From: Natronogracilivirga saccharolytica
GTDB taxonomy: Bacteria; Bacteroidota; Rhodothermia; Balneolales; Natronogracilivirgulaceae
Length of the DNA: 64,000 nucleotides
Assembly: GCF_017921895.1 (NCBI RefSeq)
Contig: NZ_JAFIDN010000002.1
Location: forward strand, 248,001 to 312,000
Direction: 5' to 3'
The notes beneath the pieces were generated by a model that was given only the letters and a program-made list of their open reading frames with translations, did not search any database and had not been told where the DNA came from. Below are positions 5,684 to 14,217 of this stretch, piece after piece. Position 1 is the first letter of the stretch. The number at the start of each line of letters is the position of its first letter. The position numbers and the translations under genes were made by a program.

Positions 5684-7255
5684 ATGAAAGCCACAGCAAA
5701 CACGAAACGCTCTGAAAAGGACCCCGCCGGGAGCAGGGAAAAAAGCGGAAAAAACAAAAAATCCGGAGTGGAAAAACGGCCGAAAATTATTTCGCTGAAG
5801 CCCAGGGAGCGGATGCAGATTCCGCGAAATCAGCCGAACGAACAGGATCCGGCCGGGCGGATCACCAATTTTTGTGAAGTATCCAACGGGTTTGATGTGC
5901 GCAAGGCTCTGGCAGAAACCGAACGGTGCCTGGAGTGCAACGATCCGGTCTGCATGCAGTCCTGCCCGGTGAATATCGATATTCCCTCCTTCATCCAGCT
6001 GATGTATCAGGGCGATTACGATGGCGCCATTCGCAAGATCCGCGAATCCAACTATCTGCCGGCGATTTGCGGCAGGGTGTGTCCGCAGGAGACGCTCTGT
6101 GAAAGCGTATGCATTGTGGGGAAAAAACGCGAGCCGCTGGCCATCGGGAAGATGGAGCGGTTTCTGGCCGATTATGAGGCCGAGCAGGGGACCTTTACTC
6201 CGCCTCCGGTTGCGGATCCCAAAGGACAGAGCGTCGCTGTGGTCGGATCCGGTCCGGGCGGACTTACCGTTGCCGCGGAACTTGCCCAGATGGGATACGA
6301 TGTCACCATTTTTGAAGCGTTGCATGAGGCCGGCGGCGTGCTGAAATACGGCATCCCCGAATTTCGTCTGCCCAAAAAGATTGTGGATGAAGAGGTGGAC
6401 CGGGTTAAAGCGCTGGGCGTCAAGGTCGAAACCAATGTGATCATCGGCCGCACGCTGACCATTGACGAACTTTTCGATGAAATGGGATACAGCGCGGTCT
6501 ATATCGGAACAGGCGCCGGTTCACCCAGATTTCTGAATATCCCGGGTGAAAACCTGAGCGGTGTCTACTCTGCCAGCGAACTGCTGACCCGGGTCAATCT
6601 GATGAAAGCCTACAAGTTCCCGGAGTATGACACACCGCTGAAAATCGGCAACAAGGTGGTGGTGCTGGGCGGCGGCGATGTGGCCATGGACGCCGTGCGT
6701 ACCTCCAAACGAATCGGTCCCGAGCAGACGACCCTGCTCTACCGCCGGTCCCGCGAAGAGATGCCTGCGCGCATCGAGGAAGTGCATCATGCCGAAGAAG
6801 AAGGCATCGAATTCCATTTTCTTACCAGTCCGGTTGCCATCCACGGCGACGAAAACGGCTGGGTGAAGGCGATAGAGTGTCAGCGGATGGAGCTTGGCGA
6901 GCCGGATGAGCGCGGACGGCGCCGGCCGGTTCCCGTTGAAGGATCCAATTTCATCATTGAAACCGACACGGTGGTCGTTGCGATCGGACAAACGCCCAAC
7001 CCGATCATCCAGCATACCACGCCCGGCCTTGAAACCACCGACTGGGGTACCATCAAGGCGGATGAAAAGGGTGCTACGAGCCGGCCCGGAATTTACGCCG
7101 GAGGTGATATCACACGCGGTGGCGCCACAGTCATTCAGGCTGTAGCCGACGGCAAAAATGCCTCAAGAGCCATTGATGAATATCTGGAGTCGCTCAGAGA
7201 AGCATCAGAAACCGAAGCGGCGCCAACGGCTTCGGGAGCGGCTCAAGGCAGGTGA
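5684..7255 (+). CDS. nfnB: NfnB/GltD-like large subunit (NADPH-dependent glutamate synthase small-chain family)
   Basis: A 523-residue flavoprotein of the GltD family. The N-terminal double [4Fe-4S] domain shows CLECNDPVCMQSCPVNIDIP and CGRVCPQETLCESVC (about residues 84-146). The FAD dinucleotide site is VVGSGPGGLTVAAELAQMGY (about 187-206) and the NADPH site is VVLGGGDVAMDAVR (about 326-339). A GGDITRGGATV FAD-ribityl motif lies near the C terminus. Adjacent nfnA argues for the NfnB role rather than glutamate synthase, since no large glutamate synthase subunit is nearby. The first ~45 residues are a Lys-rich, low-complexity extension beyond the usual family start. The ATG at 5684 was kept, but a later start near the KPRERMQIP segment is possible. 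Confidence 0.88.
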   Translation: MKATANTKRSEKDPAGSREKSGKNKKSGVEKRPKIISLKPRERMQIPRNQPNEQDPAGRITNFCEVSNGFDVRKALAETERCLECNDPVCMQSCPVNIDIPSFIQLMYQGDYDGAIRKIRESNYLPAICGRVCPQETLCESVCIVGKKREPLAIGKMERFLADYEAEQGTFTPPPVADPKGQSVAVVGSGPGGLTVAAELAQMGYDVTIFEALHEAGGVLKYGIPEFRLPKKIVDEEVDRVKALGVKVETNVIIGRTLTIDELFDEMGYSAVYIGTGAGSPRFLNIPGENLSGVYSASELLTRVNLMKAYKFPEYDTPLKIGNKVVVLGGGDVAMDAVRTSKRIGPEQTTLLYRRSREEMPARIEEVHHAEEEGIEFHFLTSPVAIHGDENGWVKAIECQRMELGEPDERGRRRPVPVEGSNFIIETDTVVVAIGQTPNPIIQHTTPGLETTDWGTIKADEKGATSRPGIYAGGDITRGGATVIQAVADGKNASRAIDEYLESLREASETEAAPTASGAAQGR

Positions 7256-7372
7256 GATGGCCGGTCCCGGATGGATGTGATAGCGTGATACTCCAATCCG
7301 TTTAAAAAAAAAGCGAATCCAGTGCTCCCTGTGGCTTGTCATACTTGCTCTTTCGGCTGCATCATTGCGGTT

Positions 7373-7759
7373 AAGTGTAAGGTATACCCTGGCATTGCCC
7401 AGTAGCGCTGCTGGGTGCATAAGACGGCCAATATACTCGACAAGGTGCCCAAGAAAATTCAGCCTCAGGTCAAAAAGATGATCCATGAAATGTACCTGTC
7501 GGATACCAAAGCCGATGCTTTGCAGGTATTTGAAGATTTTGTCAGCCTATATGGGGCCAAATATCCAAGGGCTGTTGAGTGCTTGGTCAAAGATAAAGAG
7601 GCATTGTTCGCCTTTTATGATTTTCCGGCCGAACACTGGCAGCATTTGAGAACGACCAACCCGATCGAATCGACATTCGCCACGGTTCGTCACCGTACCC
7701 GCCAAACCAGAGGATGTGGCTCGGTGGAAACGATCATCTCGAGGGTCTTCAAACTGGCC
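7373..7759 (+). mobile_element. IS256-family transposase C-terminal remnant
   Basis: The translated sequence from about 7373 reads as the C-terminal third of an IS256/Mutator-type transposase. It has RCWVHKTANILDKVPK, then PAEHWQHLRTTNPIESTFATVR, whose NPIES Glu is the last DDE catalytic residue, then TRQTRGCGS and RVFKLA. A TAG at 7403-7405 interrupts it exactly where homologues have QQRCWV (a CAG to TAG change), so the open segment restarts at GTG 7415. No N-terminal two-thirds and no terminal inverted repeats are present. The remnant runs in frame into an unrelated ImmA/IrrE remnant at 7754-7759, so it is a dead fragment left by deletion. Confidence 0.85.
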
Positions 7760-8220
7760 CATATTTGGATCGGTGAAAGTGCCGGTTTCGATTTTCGACA
7801 GCTGCAACCAAGCCAGGATCCGGTCGAGCAGTTCTGCGATCAGGTGGCCGCTGAATTTCTGGTTCCGGAAGAGGCGATTGACGAATTATGGAAGGAGCAC
7901 ACCGGCTTTGATCAGCTTGCCAGACAGTTTAAAGTAAGTCAGCTTGTTATTGCCCGCAGGGCTTTGGATCTCAAAAAATCACCAAGACGGAATTTTTTGA
8001 CTTTTATGAACAATACCAACGCAAGCTGAGAAAAAGAAAAGAAAGACAGGGCGACGGGGGGAATTTTTATGCCACATTGAGAAATCGCCTGAATAGCCGG
8101 TTTTTCTATACAGTTCATCAAGCCGTAAAAGAAAACAGATTGCTTCACAGAGAAGCTTTTCAATTAACCGGGTTGAAAGGCAAAACGTATGATAAAGCTG
8201 TTCTTGAACTCCAGGACTAA
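7754..8220 (+). pseudogene. ImmA/IrrE-family metallopeptidase/antitoxin remnant, frameshifted
   Basis: From the Leu-Ala codons at 7754-7759 the frame changes family to LAHIWIGESAGFD and then EQFCDQVAAEFLVPEE, the typical ImmA/IrrE (COG2856) sequence following its HELAH zinc motif. The His-Glu half of that motif and any N-terminal HTH domain are missing, replaced by the transposase tail. At the A6 run 7973-7978 the frame breaks: inserting one A restores DFYEQYQRKLRK, NFYATLRNRLNSRFFYTVHQAV and FQLTGLKGKTYDKAVLEL, the usual C terminus of XRE-ImmA/IrrE proteins, ending at TAA 8218-8220. As read, translation instead stops at 8029. It is therefore inactive by truncation and by frameshift. Its stop overlaps the start of the DUF4411 gene. 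Confidence 0.8.
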
Positions 8221-8720
8221 TGGAACCTTACGTTGTGGACAGCAATTTTTTTATTGAATCCTGACGGGAGCGTTTTCCATTGGATATTGTTAGTAGCTTC
8301 TGGGATCAGGTAAAACATCTGATACAAGAAGGAAAAATCATCAGTATTGATAAAGTAAGGGATGAAATATTTGAAAATGAAGATAATTTGACTTTTTAAG
8401 TGAAACAGCACATTCCGGAATCATTTTTTAAAAGTACGACAGACAGCAGGGTTTTGACGGAGTATCAAACAGTAGCTGCATGGGCAGAATCCCGATCTCA
8501 TCACTACCAAAGAAAAGCCATTGACGAATTTCTGGAATTCAAAAGAGCCGATGCCTGGCTGGTTGCTTATTGCTCAGCAATGCATCGCAAATTGGTTACA
8601 CAGGAGGTGAGTAATCCGAATCGAAAAAATAAAATTCCCTTACCGGATGCCTGTGCCCCACAGGGCGTCAAAACATTGAACATGAACGAACTATTCACAA
8701 TATTGAAAATAAGCTTTTGA
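8220..8720 (+). pseudogene. DUF4411 PIN-like gene with two in-frame stops
   Basis: Reading from ATG 8220 (overlapping the upstream TAA) in a single frame gives the whole of a ~165-residue DUF4411 protein. It opens with MEPYVVDSNFFIES, then PLDIVSSFWDQVKHLI, KIISIDKVRDEIFENED and ADAWLVAYCSAMHRKLVTQE, and ends with NKIPLPDACAPQGVKT. Early VDSNFFI and late ADAWLVAYC carry the PIN-fold acidic residues. TGA at 8262-8264 and TAA at 8397-8399 interrupt it without a frame change, so these are point mutations. DUF4411 genes often follow ImmA/IrrE genes as predicted toxin-antitoxin pairs, and this pair keeps the overlapping arrangement although both members are broken. The base composition is AT-richer than the surrounding genes, which suggests acquired DNA. 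Confidence 0.82.
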
Positions 8721-8887
8721 ATTTTATCAATAATATCAGCGAATAGATTGAATGTTAAAGCTGGCTATTTAGAAATACATTATCAATGGTTTCGGATGAA
8801 GTAGTAGTTTATTACTCAACCATATTATTGCCTGACTTATCAATTATTGCAACGAGCAAACACCTCAGTACAACCCTGATCTTTCCC

Positions 8888-9520
8888 TTACGAATGCTTT
8901 ACCAGCGCTTCCATCACCCGGTTGGTTCGAGCAGCCGTTATTCCGGTGCTGGGAAATCGGGTGGAGGTATCATTTCCTGATGTCCGCCTTTTTGACGGAT
9001 CGTTTTCATCGTGCATCCGGGCTTCCTGCCGGCTGTCGTAATACTCCAGCAATTCATTAAAAATTGTTTTTATCAGCGGTTGCTGGATGTGCTCGGGCAT
9101 ATCGAAATGAAAGCGCACCGTATTGAATGAGTTTTCGCCTTTGTTTTCTGTTTGGATTTCATTGCCGCTCCGAAGGTGCCGGCTTGTTCATACGGATTTC
9201 CACCGAGCGGACTTCGCCGATCACACCGTCATCCACAAGCTCGATGATTTTACGATAATCCGGCAGCATTCGCCGGTAATAAGCAACAAAGAGCGGCACA
9301 CCCGCCTGTTCACACGTTTCGATCATTTCCAGGCATTCACGATAAGATCGTGCCACGGGTTTTTCGACATAGACCGGTTTCCCGGCTTCAGCGGCCTTGC
9401 GGGTCAGTTCCGCATGGACATGAGGAGGTGTGGCGATATACACGGCATTTATTTCGGGATCAGCGAGCAATTTGCCGGCGTCATCATATCCGGTGATTAA
9501 GCGAGGTATTTTCCTTGTGA
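8888..9520 (-). pseudogene. Gfo/Idh/MocA-family oxidoreductase, internally deleted pseudogene
   Basis: Two fragments of one NAD(P)-dependent sugar-type dehydrogenase remain. Bases about 9520-9159 encode YDDAGKLLADPEINAVYIATPP, VYVEKPVARS with the catalytic-region EKP, and AYYRRMLPDYRKI, ending at a stop after MNKPAPSERQ. Bases 9118-8888, in another frame, encode the family C terminus: HFDMPEHIQQPLIKTIFNELL and FPSTGITAARTNRVMEAL. The Rossmann start (GxGxxG) is missing behind an upstream stop, and about a hundred residues between the fragments are gone. A charged stretch of about 28 residues (EYYDSRQEAR onward) interrupts the C-terminal fragment. No functional product is expected. Confidence 0.75.
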
Positions 9521-9742
9521 CTCATTTCAATGATATTCTGTGTTCATCGATTTGAAAAATTCTGCCACATAATGAAGCGCATACATTTCGGCCAAAAATA
9601 AATAGTTTTAGATCAAACAGTGGGCTCGGATCGGTCATATTGCTCAAATAAATGACTACCACCTTGATGCTATTTCCAGGATACAGAGTTCGGCTGGATG
9701 GCAGCGCCCTGTTCCTTCCTTTTATTATCGACTATTCCGAAG

Positions 9743-10258
9743 TTACCGGAGCCTACCTATCTGTAAACTTAACGCCAGCCCGCCGAAAGGCTGATTCGTG
9801 TTAACATTTATAAAGCTGTACAACCCGAGCGCAGTGTAATCGGTAACTAACCAGGATACGTTGCCCTCCAGCGGGAAACCCAGGATCCGGTCCATTTTGC
9901 CTTCCGGATCACCACCGATAAGCCTTGGATATTGATTCCCACCCACGATTGAGGCTCCGACACCGGTGTTGGCGTAAAACGGGCCGATCATTGCGGCCCT
10001 TCCGTACATAACAGCGATATCCCAGACGTCATCTCCCCACAGCGGATCGGTAGAAGCAATGCGTGCCGATAGTATGTGCCGGTTGAATTCGTAGGAAATC
10101 CCTGTGGCAGAACCCGGACCCTGGGTGGTAATGCCGTAGGAAAAAGAAGATCTAAACCGGCTTTCAGATTTCATCCAGGCGTCCGTCCGGGCGTATAGCG
10201 GAGAGCTAACCAGCAAAGTGCACAAAATTACTAGACAAATCCTGACCATAAATATCAC
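9743..10258 (-). CDS. Secreted/outer-membrane protein of unknown function
   Basis: A 171-residue protein with a clear signal peptide: MVRICLVILCTLLVSSPLYA, with predicted cleavage after YARTDA or just before it. The mature part alternates hydrophobic and polar residues and ends LSLQIGRLR, as expected of a small beta-barrel or beta-sandwich envelope protein. The family is not recognised. It lies 20 bp downstream of the larger envelope protein gene on the same strand, so the two probably form an operon and may act together. Confidence 0.6.
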   Translation of the reverse strand: MIFMVRICLVILCTLLVSSPLYARTDAWMKSESRFRSSFSYGITTQGPGSATGISYEFNRHILSARIASTDPLWGDDVWDIAVMYGRAAMIGPFYANTGVGASIVGGNQYPRLIGGDPEGKMDRILGFPLEGNVSWLVTDYTALGLYSFINVNTNQPFGGLALSLQIGRLR

Positions 10259-10278
10259 ATTTTAAAATTCGAGTCAGT

Positions 10279-11538
10279 TTAAAATCTGGTGTTAACGATA
10301 TTGGCAAAATCCGATCCGAAGGTATATGACAAAGCAATAAGGCCTCTGAAGGAATAATCAGTGGCCAATTCGCGCTGATCCAAAAGTACATCTTCTAAAG
10401 CCGCATCTCCTATCGGAAGCGAGACCTGATCCTGAACAAGATCATAATCAAGCTGCAGGGAAAGGGAGAGACCTTTAGCCAGCCGAACCGAAAGCTGCCC
10501 AAAAGTTTGAATTTTCCTGAGATCAAAATCGTGAAAATAATGTGAGCCTGTTATACCGGCATTTATACTGCCCCATGGCTGTTGATATTCTGCCCGCAGC
10601 TGCAGCTCATGTAAAAAAAGATTCTCGGTTGTTTTGTCAAAAATCGTACGCTCATAATAGTTGGCATGGGTATAGCCGAACCGATAATTAACCTTAACAG
10701 CACGACGTGTTGCTTCTTGATAAGGAAACAGGCTGTACTCAATTCCCGGAGTAATACGGAAACGATGCTCCAGATTCCGGTCATCCCGTGTTATGTAATC
10801 GGCAAAAAGAGCGGCAGACCAGTGTTCCGTTAAGCTTTTAATCGCATAGCTATTAATACCATGGCGATGATGCCTGTTTATAAAATCATCTTCATCCTCT
10901 CGTTCGATTCTGGTATAGTGGTAATTGAAATACGGACGGAATCTTAAATTCCATTCTTCAGTAACGCGGTCGGCAAAAAAACCCCAACGCGAATCAAAAT
11001 CAGTACGTTTTGACTCATCCCGAAATTGAAACCGCCCTGCGTAAACTTCAAATACCCAATAATTCCACGGATCATCCTCTTCCCTGATTATCTCTTCTTC
11101 TACCTCATCATAATCTACTGAAAACTGTGAGGCATATGGAGTCCGTAGCATATAAGGGACCAAGCCCTTGCGGATGGCTTCATTAAGGCTCTCGCGAATT
11201 TCATCATCCGTCATGTTTTGATCTACCCGGTGTTCAAAATCAAGATGAAAATCGCTGAACTCCCGACGTCCGATGAAACTGAGTTCATAAAGACGGCCTC
11301 TGGCCCCGGTAGGTTCGGCGGTTATAAACAAGTGAATATCGGCCTGATCCTGATCGCGAACATAATTTACAAAAGTAATCTCTCTGCGGATGTGATCGTA
11401 ATCACACCATTCACAATCAATAAATAGTCTCAGTCGCTCATTGCTTTGACTTTGAACTTCTGCATTGGCGATTTGATAAGTAAAAGCAACTGATAAAATA
11501 AATGTAACAGATAAAAATGATTTCAGAGTCCAATTCAT
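10279..11538 (-). CDS. Predicted outer-membrane beta-barrel protein of unknown function
   Basis: A 419-residue protein with a signal peptide (cleavage likely after IANA, about residue 26). The N-terminal soluble domain carries LFIDCEWCDYDHIRREI with a Cys42-x2-Cys45 pair, then VNYVRDQDQADIHLFIT. The acidic linker is at about residues 140-160. From about 165 to the end, amphipathic strands rich in Tyr, Phe, Arg and Asp (FEVYAGRFQFRD, GLIALSYTFGSDF) suggest a beta-barrel of roughly 12-16 strands. The DC-x2-CD and YVRDxxxADIH pattern recurs in uncharacterised FCB-group proteins as I recall, but no function is known to me. It is the first gene of a two-gene unit. Confidence 0.65.
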   Translation of the reverse strand: MNWTLKSFLSVTFILSVAFTYQIANAEVQSQSNERLRLFIDCEWCDYDHIRREITFVNYVRDQDQADIHLFITAEPTGARGRLYELSFIGRREFSDFHLDFEHRVDQNMTDDEIRESLNEAIRKGLVPYMLRTPYASQFSVDYDEVEEEIIREEDDPWNYWVFEVYAGRFQFRDESKRTDFDSRWGFFADRVTEEWNLRFRPYFNYHYTRIEREDEDDFINRHHRHGINSYAIKSLTEHWSAALFADYITRDDRNLEHRFRITPGIEYSLFPYQEATRRAVKVNYRFGYTHANYYERTIFDKTTENLFLHELQLRAEYQQPWGSINAGITGSHYFHDFDLRKIQTFGQLSVRLAKGLSLSLQLDYDLVQDQVSLPIGDAALEDVLLDQRELATDYSFRGLIALSYTFGSDFANIVNTRF

Positions 11539-11842
11539 GGTGTAAATAATTTACTCAAGTTCAGGGAGAGCTGTCAGGGTCACTTATACATAACGCTTAT
11601 ACTTAGAAGTGGGTATCCCGATAACCCGTCAAAATAAGGTCAAAATGGGGGTTAAATGGGGTTGGACGGCTTTTTAAGGATTGTAAGTCTGGTTTGAAGC
11701 TGCCGGAGCAGTTGTCATTAAACAAGGGAGAAAAAATACGAGGGATCTGATATGGGAAATAAAAAAAATGATAGAAAAAGTTCGGGGAAACTGACACCAT
11801 CTCCAAATTGAACTGTAACCGAAAAACTGGAAAGAAGAATGC
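11539..11842. other. Intergenic region, no gene seen
   Basis: About 300 bp of AT-rich sequence between the outer-membrane protein start and the tRNA terminator. It should contain the minus-strand promoter of the outer-membrane pair. A short inverted repeat (GGGTATC...GATAACCC, about 11611-11627) is the only structure noticed. Confidence 0.6.
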
Positions 11843-11884
11843 AAAAAAAAAGCTTTGCACCACTGTAAGTTTGTGATACAAAGC
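11843..11884 (-). terminator. Intrinsic terminator of tRNA-Phe
   Basis: On the minus strand GCTTTG (11884-11879) pairs with CAAAGC (11857-11852), directly followed by nine T (11851-11843). It lies 11 bp after the tRNA 3' end and ends the tRNA transcript. Confidence 0.8.
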
Positions 11885-11894
11885 ATTTTAGCTG

Positions 11895-11967
<73 letters not shown>

Positions 11968-12003: not shown

Positions 12004-13764
12004 TTATTTTGACAAAACCTGTTTATTATTTTTTTCAGCAGCCGGAACCTGTTCGCCTCCAATATGTATGTCTTTTAGACGAAGCTGCAGACTGGTTTTA
12101 TTGTTCCAGGTGTTTTCCTCTATGGTATAGGCAATATCAACGGACCCTGAGCCCGCATTGCGCAGCGGTTCGGCATATTTTTCCATGTTGAAGCCAATCG
12201 CTTCAAAGGCCGGTGCGCCGCTTTGTGATATGCGCATTTTGAGATGTCCCTGCCCGACGATCATCGGACGTGTATTGAGGTTCACGTCGCGGCTGACAAA
12301 AATGGGTTTGAGATTGTTGGGACCAAACGGTTCGAATTGCTTGAGCAGTTTCCAGAAGCGCTGGGTGATTTCATTCAGCGACAACTCGGTATCAATCAGC
12401 AATTCGGGATTGAAATCCTGCTCGGAAAGCATTTCACCTGTGATATCGTGAAACCGCTTTATAAACTCTTCAAGCTGATCTTCTTCAATCGTCAAACCTG
12501 CCGCGTACTTGTGACCGCCAAACTGAACAAGCAGGTCATCGCATTTTTTCAACGCATCGTAAATATTGAAACCGTTGATGCTTCTTGCCGACCCCTTTAT
12601 TTGTCCGTCAACAGTGCTGAGCATGATGGTCGGACGGCAGTAGATATCCACAAGTCGCGAGGCAACTATGCCGATCACTCCAAGATGCCAGTCCGGATCG
12701 TGAAGAACCAGGCATGATCCGGCGTCGCCATAGCTGTCACCGTCAATTTGCTTGAGCGCTTCATCCATCGTGCGGGTATCGGTACTGCGTCGCTGCAGGT
12801 TGATTTTCTCAAGACGAGAGGCCAGTTCGCCTGCCTCTTCCGGTGTTTCGGATATGAGCAGCGCCACAGCAACGGCGGCATCCCCCATCCTTCCGGCCGC
12901 ATTGATCCTGGGCCCGAGTGAAAAGACAATATGTGAGGTGGTTAATTCGGGGCCCCTCAGCTGAATGCGGTCAAGAAGGGCTTTTATTCCGGCCCTCGGA
13001 TTTTTATTTATGCGATCCAGGCCCTCCCGCATCAGAATGCGGTTTTCATCGACAATGGGCACAATATCCGATGCGATGGATATGGCGACCAGGTCCAGAT
13101 AGGGATGTGCGACATTCGGGGGCAGCCCCAGCTTGACCAGAGTTGCCTGAATCAGTTTGAAACCGACACCGGCTCCGGACAACCCCTTGAAGGGATAAGG
13201 ACATCCGGGCTGCTTGGGATCGAGAACAGCCACAGCATCAGGGATCTTGTCGCCGGCATTGTGGTGGTCACAGATAATGAGCTCAATACCCTTGCTTCTG
13301 GCGTATTCGGTCTCCTCCACGGCAGTAATGCCGCAGTCAACCGAAACAATCAGTCCGGCGCCGATGCTTTCGGCGTAGTCAATACCGTCACGGCCGATGC
13401 CGTATCCTTCCTTGAAACGATGCGGAATATAGAAGTGCACATCCAGTCCGAAGTTTTTCAGGAAGGTATGCATAATGGCTGTTGCGGTGGTGCCGTCCAC
13501 ATCATAATCACCGTAAACAACGACTTTTTCGCTGTTTCTGATTGCCGCCGCAAGCCGTTCAGCCCCCGTTTCCATTCCCTTCATAAGGAACGGATCGTGA
13601 AGGCTTTCTAAGTCAGGTCTGAAAAACTGTCGCGCATCTTCAAACGTTTTGATCCCCCGAATGCTGAGCAGGCGCGCGATCGACTCAGGAACACCAAGTT
13701 CCTTTTGGAGTCGGGATATAGCCTCCTCATGTTCCGGCTGGATGTAGTTCCATCGGAAAGACAT
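12004..13764 (-). CDS. recJ: Single-stranded-DNA-specific exonuclease RecJ
   Basis: A 586-residue DHH/DHHA1 exonuclease that degrades 5' ssDNA ends in recombination and mismatch repair. Motifs from the N terminus: VVVYGDYDVDGTTATAIM (about 82-99), SVDCGIT (about 141-147), the DHH motif ICDHHN (about 164-169), and DHHA1-domain GGHKYAAGLTI (about 440). A C-terminal OB-fold domain ends QLRLKDIHIGGEQ. The start was set at ATG 13764 (MSFRWNYIQPE), where homologous sequence begins; an upstream in-frame codon at 13827 would add a 21-residue non-conserved leader. Length is typical (about 570-590). It is divergent from the downstream methyltransferase gene. Confidence 0.95.
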   Translation of the reverse strand: MSFRWNYIQPEHEEAISRLQKELGVPESIARLLSIRGIKTFEDARQFFRPDLESLHDPFLMKGMETGAERLAAAIRNSEKVVVYGDYDVDGTTATAIMHTFLKNFGLDVHFYIPHRFKEGYGIGRDGIDYAESIGAGLIVSVDCGITAVEETEYARSKGIELIICDHHNAGDKIPDAVAVLDPKQPGCPYPFKGLSGAGVGFKLIQATLVKLGLPPNVAHPYLDLVAISIASDIVPIVDENRILMREGLDRINKNPRAGIKALLDRIQLRGPELTTSHIVFSLGPRINAAGRMGDAAVAVALLISETPEEAGELASRLEKINLQRRSTDTRTMDEALKQIDGDSYGDAGSCLVLHDPDWHLGVIGIVASRLVDIYCRPTIMLSTVDGQIKGSARSINGFNIYDALKKCDDLLVQFGGHKYAAGLTIEEDQLEEFIKRFHDITGEMLSEQDFNPELLIDTELSLNEITQRFWKLLKQFEPFGPNNLKPIFVSRDVNLNTRPMIVGQGHLKMRISQSGAPAFEAIGFNMEKYAEPLRNAGSGSVDIAYTIEENTWNNKTSLQLRLKDIHIGGEQVPAAEKNNKQVLSK

Positions 13765-14217
13765 AGTGGTAAGTGTCTTGTTCTTTTTATCATGAAAAGG
13801 TGTCGGGCGGCCAGGCCCGCGAACCACATAGTGCCGCGTTGCGCGCGTGCTTTTCCGGCATCATCCGCAGTATAAATATCTGTTCTTCAGATATAAATGT
13901 AATTTAAGCGGATAAAATTCTGCAACCTCAAGTTACAAAAAATTGATGTCGGAAAATATAACGAATCAGGTTCCTCGCTTCTTGCGGATCCGTTAAACAT
14001 ACAGTGATTCAGTGGATGTCATGGTGCTGCGCCGGTCATTGCACATCGGAAATCAGGGAACGTCAAACCGCATACAGTCCCGGTTAAAAAAGCAGGAAAC
14101 GCAATTCAGGGTTCATCAGAGAGCGGAAAAAGCGTATATTTGACATCCGGCTCACGGCGTGCACCAGGCTCCCGACTTCCGGCCAGACGTTACATCGCAT
14201 ACTGTATTACATCCCTT
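13765..14217. other. Divergent intergenic region with one promoter-like element
   Basis: About 450 bp between recJ (minus) and the methyltransferase gene (plus). TATATTTG at 14135-14142 fits the TAnnTTTG -7 consensus, 76 nt before the methyltransferase ATG; a TTC (14112-14114) sits where the -33 TTG is expected. No small gene or RNA was recognised. Confidence 0.45.

What the first reader, a model, noticed from the sequence alone, without database searches (positions are those of the whole stretch)
7373..8220. In-frame chimera of an IS256 transposase tail and an ImmA/IrrE peptidase, joined at a shared Leu-Ala
Transposase RVFKLA runs into LAHIWIGES of ImmA/IrrE at 7754-7759. Both families have Leu-Ala there (FKLAQ and HELAH), so a short shared sequence may mark the deletion point. 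The result is an open frame of ~205 codons that looks like a real gene but is a fusion of two unrelated remnants lacking the HE of the zinc motif.
Basis: seen in the sequence. Interest (0 to 1): 0.55.

Follow-up and report, generated by a model that had tools for sequence, protein, structure and literature searches.

The report
Two broken genes fused by deletion
A leftover piece of a jumping gene and a leftover piece of a toxin-controlling protease gene have been joined by a deletion so that together they look like one gene; the surrounding genes are broken too, so this is ordinary gene decay rather than a new protein.

Summary
An open frame at 7415-8029 (204 codons) starts as the end of an IS256-family transposase and runs on, in frame, into the second half of an ImmA/IrrE (Peptidase_M78) domain; the change-over is at 7754-7759 (Leu-Ala). 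It is a decayed chimera. A TAG (7403-7405) interrupts the transposase part. The ImmA part leaves its frame near 7970-8000 and resumes in another frame to 8220. The adjoining DUF4411 gene (8220-8720) has two in-frame stops. Intact relatives have a full-length ImmA/IrrE protein (about 375-420 aa, HExxH present) abutting an intact DUF4411 gene: the known VapBC52-like / COG2856-plus-PIN toxin-antitoxin pair. The fusion lacks the antitoxin's N-terminal part and the HE of the zinc motif. No other genome searched shows the fusion (128 of the order, 395 of the phylum, own included). Each family occurs once in this genome and the join lies 233 kb from the nearest contig end, so repeat-driven misassembly is unlikely; reads were not available. 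The shared Leu is well supported, the shared Ala only partly, and microhomology between the parental DNAs cannot be shown.

The parts
7379..7759 (+). Fragment of an IS256-family transposase, truncated at both ends, ending at FKL(A); in-frame TAG at 7403-7405
   Evidence: PF00872 243-353 with one TAG; NF033543 216-331/338; tblastx left edge at 7379
7754..7759 (+). Change-over codons CTG GCC (Leu-Ala), assignable to either parent
7760..8029 (+). Second half of an ImmA/IrrE (Peptidase_M78, COG2856) domain, beginning just after HE-L-A; frame lost near 7970-8000, stop at 8027
   Evidence: PF06114 50-122/123; 41 relatives
7972..8220 (+). C-terminal part of the same ImmA/IrrE protein, in another frame, ending in TAA 8218-8220
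   Evidence: matched in 38 of 41 loci
8220..8720 (+). DUF4411 (PIN-type toxin) pseudogene, ATG overlapping the stop of the ImmA remnant; in-frame TGA 8262-8264 and TAA 8397-8399
   Evidence: PF14367 1-159/159 with 1 TGA and 1 TAA

Best explanation
It is a deletion chimera between two pseudogenes. An IS256-type element lay upstream of, or inside, the 5' part of a VapBC52-like antitoxin-toxin pair (ImmA/IrrE protein plus DUF4411 toxin). A deletion removed the end of the transposase (about 35-40 codons in relatives, and the right end of the element) together with about the first 220-265 codons of the ImmA/IrrE gene as counted in relatives, and joined transposase FKL(A) to (HEL)A-H. That the join is in frame is a one-in-three event. 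The resulting 204-codon frame has no plausible start of its own, lacks the toxin-binding N-terminal part and the zinc-binding HE, and so can neither neutralise a toxin nor cleave. Shown: the two halves, their edges, the lesions, the lack of the fusion elsewhere. Inferred: a single deletion by illegitimate recombination, and that the toxin was dead or silent before its antitoxin was lost.
For: Two Pfam families meeting at the join; single copy of each family in the genome; TAG, frame loss, TGA and TAA within 1.3 kb next to intact gltD-like and recJ genes; ImmA half in 41 of 41 ImmA loci and IS half in 0 of those 41; IS half in 50 of 51 IS loci and ImmA half in 0 of those 51; fusion in no other of 128 order genomes or 395 phylum genomes (one weak row, G410, not examined further); 21 of 24 ImmA loci are followed within about 20 bases by a DUF4411-like ORF.
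Against: 204 codons without a stop in a decayed stretch might suggest selection; but with 4 lesions over 7379-8720 a gap of that size has a chance of about 0.19. The parental DNA at the join is unknown, so microhomology is not demonstrated; none of 40 ImmA relatives has exactly CTG GCC there, while 3 IS relatives do (L080, L081, L082).
Confidence: 0.93

Rival explanations
1. Assembly chimera: two unrelated contigs were joined in the assembly.
For: No reads were available; the genome is in 49 contigs.
Against: Neither half occurs elsewhere in the genome, so there is no repeat to mislead an assembler; the join lies at 255,754 of a contig of 488,967 bases, 233 kb from the nearest end; both sides are decayed remnants.
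Confidence: 0.04
2. The chimera is a domesticated, expressed protein with a new role.
For: In-frame join; 204 open codons; the ImmA part keeps residues invariant in five relatives.
Against: No start other than a GTG that is an internal transposase codon, with no purine-rich ribosome-binding-like stretch in the 25 bases before it (read by eye); TAG just upstream; frame lost before the ImmA C-terminus; zinc motif incomplete; no relative has it.
Confidence: 0.02
3. Two events: the join fell at the first LAH of F-T-L-A-H-E-L-A-H, and four codons (H-E-L-A or equivalent) were later lost between the LAH repeats.
For: 24 of 40 relatives have the repeat (my count); IS256 (V)FKLA lines up with ImmA (M)FTLA over four to five residues.
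Against: Needs two events where one suffices; the closest relatives by identity (L055, L084) read FTIAHELAH and FTMAHELAH, with a weaker repeat.
Confidence: 0.12

Closest known systems
VapBC52 of Mycobacterium tuberculosis (PMC13273310; passages read) and PDB 9vzy (HTH cro/C1-type protein with DUF4411 protein)
   Same: Relatives of the remnant are an ImmA/IrrE-type protein abutting a DUF4411 toxin; a relative's two genes match two different chains of one solved entry, 9vzy. In the passages read, VapB52 has a toxin-binding N-terminal domain, an IrrE-like middle domain with HEXXH, and self-cleaves with ssDNA.
   Different: Here the N-terminal part and HE are gone, the antitoxin frame is broken and the toxin has two stops. 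That 9vzy belongs to that paper was not shown (its text does not hold '9VZY').
COG2856-Xre fusion proteins in operons with PIN toxins (Makarova et al. 2009, PMC2701414; passages read)
   Same: The paper states that fused COG2856-Xre genes often share an operon with PIN or RelE toxins.
   Different: The window copy is a pseudogene; an HTH was not detected by Pfam in five intact relatives.
IS256-family transposases (NF033543, PF00872)
   Same: Residues 1-112 match; closest relatives about 61% identical.
   Different: Truncated at both ends, one internal stop, no full copy in the genome.

Membership tests
IS256-family transposase | Match to the IS256/mutator transposase family | tested here: met
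   (fragment only)
IS256-family transposase | Full-length open frame with complete catalytic domain | tested here: not met
   only PF00872 positions 243-353 are present, with one TAG
ImmA/IrrE (Peptidase_M78, COG2856) | Match to the family profile | tested here: met
   PF06114 50-122/123, 31 bits, cut-off 22
ImmA/IrrE (Peptidase_M78, COG2856) | HExxH zinc motif | tested here: not met
   H and E absent at the join; present in 40 of 41 relatives
VapBC52-like ImmA/IrrE-DUF4411 toxin-antitoxin pair | Adjacent antitoxin and DUF4411 genes in that order | tested here: met
   ATG of DUF4411 overlaps the antitoxin stop at 8220; 21 of 24 relatives similar
VapBC52-like ImmA/IrrE-DUF4411 toxin-antitoxin pair | Intact reading frames of both genes | tested here: not met
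   frame loss in the antitoxin; TGA and TAA in the toxin
VapBC52-like ImmA/IrrE-DUF4411 toxin-antitoxin pair | N-terminal HTH/XRE domain in intact relatives | tested here: inconclusive
   no Pfam HTH in 5 relatives; solved relative named HTH cro/C1-type, E 0.00035

The most novel reading that the evidence does not exclude
The 204-codon chimera is translated and kept as a small protein with a role of its own, for instance as a DNA-binding or decoy remnant of the antitoxin.
Probability: 0.02. Interest if true: 0.6.

Novelty: new member of a known kind. Interest (0 to 1): 0.1.

Why it matters
It shows how a gene caller can report a plausible 204-residue protein that is two pseudogene fragments, and it marks a dead copy of a VapBC52-like toxin-antitoxin pair. 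It opens no new question about mechanism.

Tried and rejected
A single plasmid match that seemed to span the join (Streptomyces nigrescens, residues 33-204) was checked: its similarity beyond FKL is a weak extension into the transposase's own tail and beyond, through a stop, and it holds no ImmA half (L002). Matches running to residues 151-155 in Burkholderia and Methylomonas lie in annotated IS256 transposases and hold no ImmA half. One search counts a second plasmid record with 80% coverage that was not among the 60 listed and was not examined. Order-level rows that run past the join (G055, G073, G074) hold no ImmA half (L011, L012, L015, L019-L023); phylum row G410 (residues 2-141, 25%) was not examined.

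Integration at tRNA-Phe (11894-11967): no repeat of 10 or more bases of the tRNA within 7255-11880. Left-over ImmA N-terminal sequence between gltD and the transposase fragment: none convincing in 7240-7400 (best E 0.2-0.9). ImmA half in viral contigs: none. Exact junction DNA in viral contigs: none. Phage records: two transposase-only matches. Literature searches for transposase-fusion pseudogenes gave nothing specific (listings seen only).

Structure prediction was not run: a model of the chimera would not tell a pseudogene from a gene.

Full report
What is there. The frame at 7415-8029 is open for 204 codons. Pfam assigns residues 2-99 to Transposase_mut and 114-183 to Peptidase_M78; NCBIfam assigns residues 1-112 to IS256 transposases. 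The change-over codons are CTG GCC at 7754-7759. An alignment with five intact ImmA/IrrE relatives shows the columns from L114-A115-H116 onward nearly continuous with them, and only scattered agreement before. The GTG at 7415 is the valine of the transposase's WVHKT; an in-frame TAG lies just upstream at 7403-7405, and transposase similarity continues across it to 7379.

The rest of the region. The ImmA part loses its frame shortly after RALDL, near 7970-8000. Its C-terminal part is readable in another frame to the TAA at 8218-8220, matched in 38 of 41 relatives' loci. A DUF4411 gene begins at the overlapping ATG 8220 and has TGA 8262-8264 and TAA 8397-8399. The upstream gltD-like gene (5684-7255) and the downstream recJ (12004-13827) are intact.

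Intact relatives. One genome-contig scan with the ImmA half gave 22 loci; with two from the order search and 17 from the phylum search I compared 41. 40 of 41 have HE[LIVF]xH; the exception is L076, the most distant. Of 24 loci examined for neighbours, 21 have a DUF4411-like ORF starting within about 20 bases of the ImmA stop; L069 is broken, and L072 and L074 keep only a tail. One relative's two proteins match two chains of a single solved entry, 9vzy. Makarova et al. 2009 (passages read) describe COG2856-Xre fusions in operons with PIN toxins. The VapBC52 paper (passages read) reports toxin binding by the antitoxin's N-terminal domain and ssDNA-triggered self-cleavage that needs the zinc site. 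All of these parts are missing here.

Is the fusion found elsewhere? In 128 genomes of the order 14 have a match (own included), and only the own genome covers both halves convincingly. In 395 genomes of the phylum 79 have a match (own included), again only the own. Weak rows that run past the join were tested with strict halves: 0 of 51 IS loci contain the ImmA half and 0 of 41 ImmA loci contain the IS half, while each half is found in 50 of 51 and 41 of 41 of its own loci. One row (G410) and one plasmid record were not examined. The DNA stretch 7300-8750 has no match in 58 relatives other than the own genome.

The join. Leu at residue 114 is shared: 30 of 30 IS relatives with data have it. 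Ala at 115 is in 8 of 30. In ImmA relatives H-E-L-A-H is found in 39 of 40 with the motif (one has HELVH). For random in-frame joins of one IS256 and one ImmA protein, a shared run of two or more residues has a frequency of 0.009 (one pair of relatives, so rough). That hints at short homology, but it rests on the IS256 parent having had Ala, which is uncertain. At DNA level the parents are unknown: 3 IS relatives have CTG GCC (L080-L082) and none of 40 ImmA relatives has it. Because relatives read F-T-x-A-H-E-L-A-H, a two-step route is also open.

Artefact? Each family occurs once in the genome at E 0.001, and the join is 233 kb from the nearest end of contig C2. I could not see reads.

Context. 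In two relatives of the family (G008, G011) the slot between gltD and tRNA-Phe holds a transaminase-like gene and another gene, similar between the two; nothing there resembles window 7255-11850 (tblastx). The own genome has only weak matches to that transaminase-like protein (25% and 35%). So the window's segment is a variable slot in which foreign genes have come and decayed (inference).

Verdict. This is a deletion chimera of pseudogenes, of low interest.

Noticed in passing
   Followed up: yes
window 8888-9470, minus strand: Fragment of a GFO/IDH/MocA oxidoreductase (PF01408 from position 57 only), apparently another remnant in the same slot.
   Followed up: partly
window 9743-10258 and 10279-11538, minus strand: Two ORFs with no Pfam match at E 0.1; by eye they look like secreted or outer-membrane proteins.
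   Followed up: no
window 7255-11893: Variable slot between gltD and tRNA-Phe: two family relatives have other genes there.
   Followed up: partly
L072 and L074 (Latescibacterota): The ImmA gene is followed at once by what looks like only the last codons of DUF4411, as if most of the toxin had been deleted; L075 has the whole toxin.
   Followed up: no
L069 (Saprospiraceae): The ImmA frame is broken after 237 codons while the similar L068 is intact: another decaying copy.
   Followed up: no
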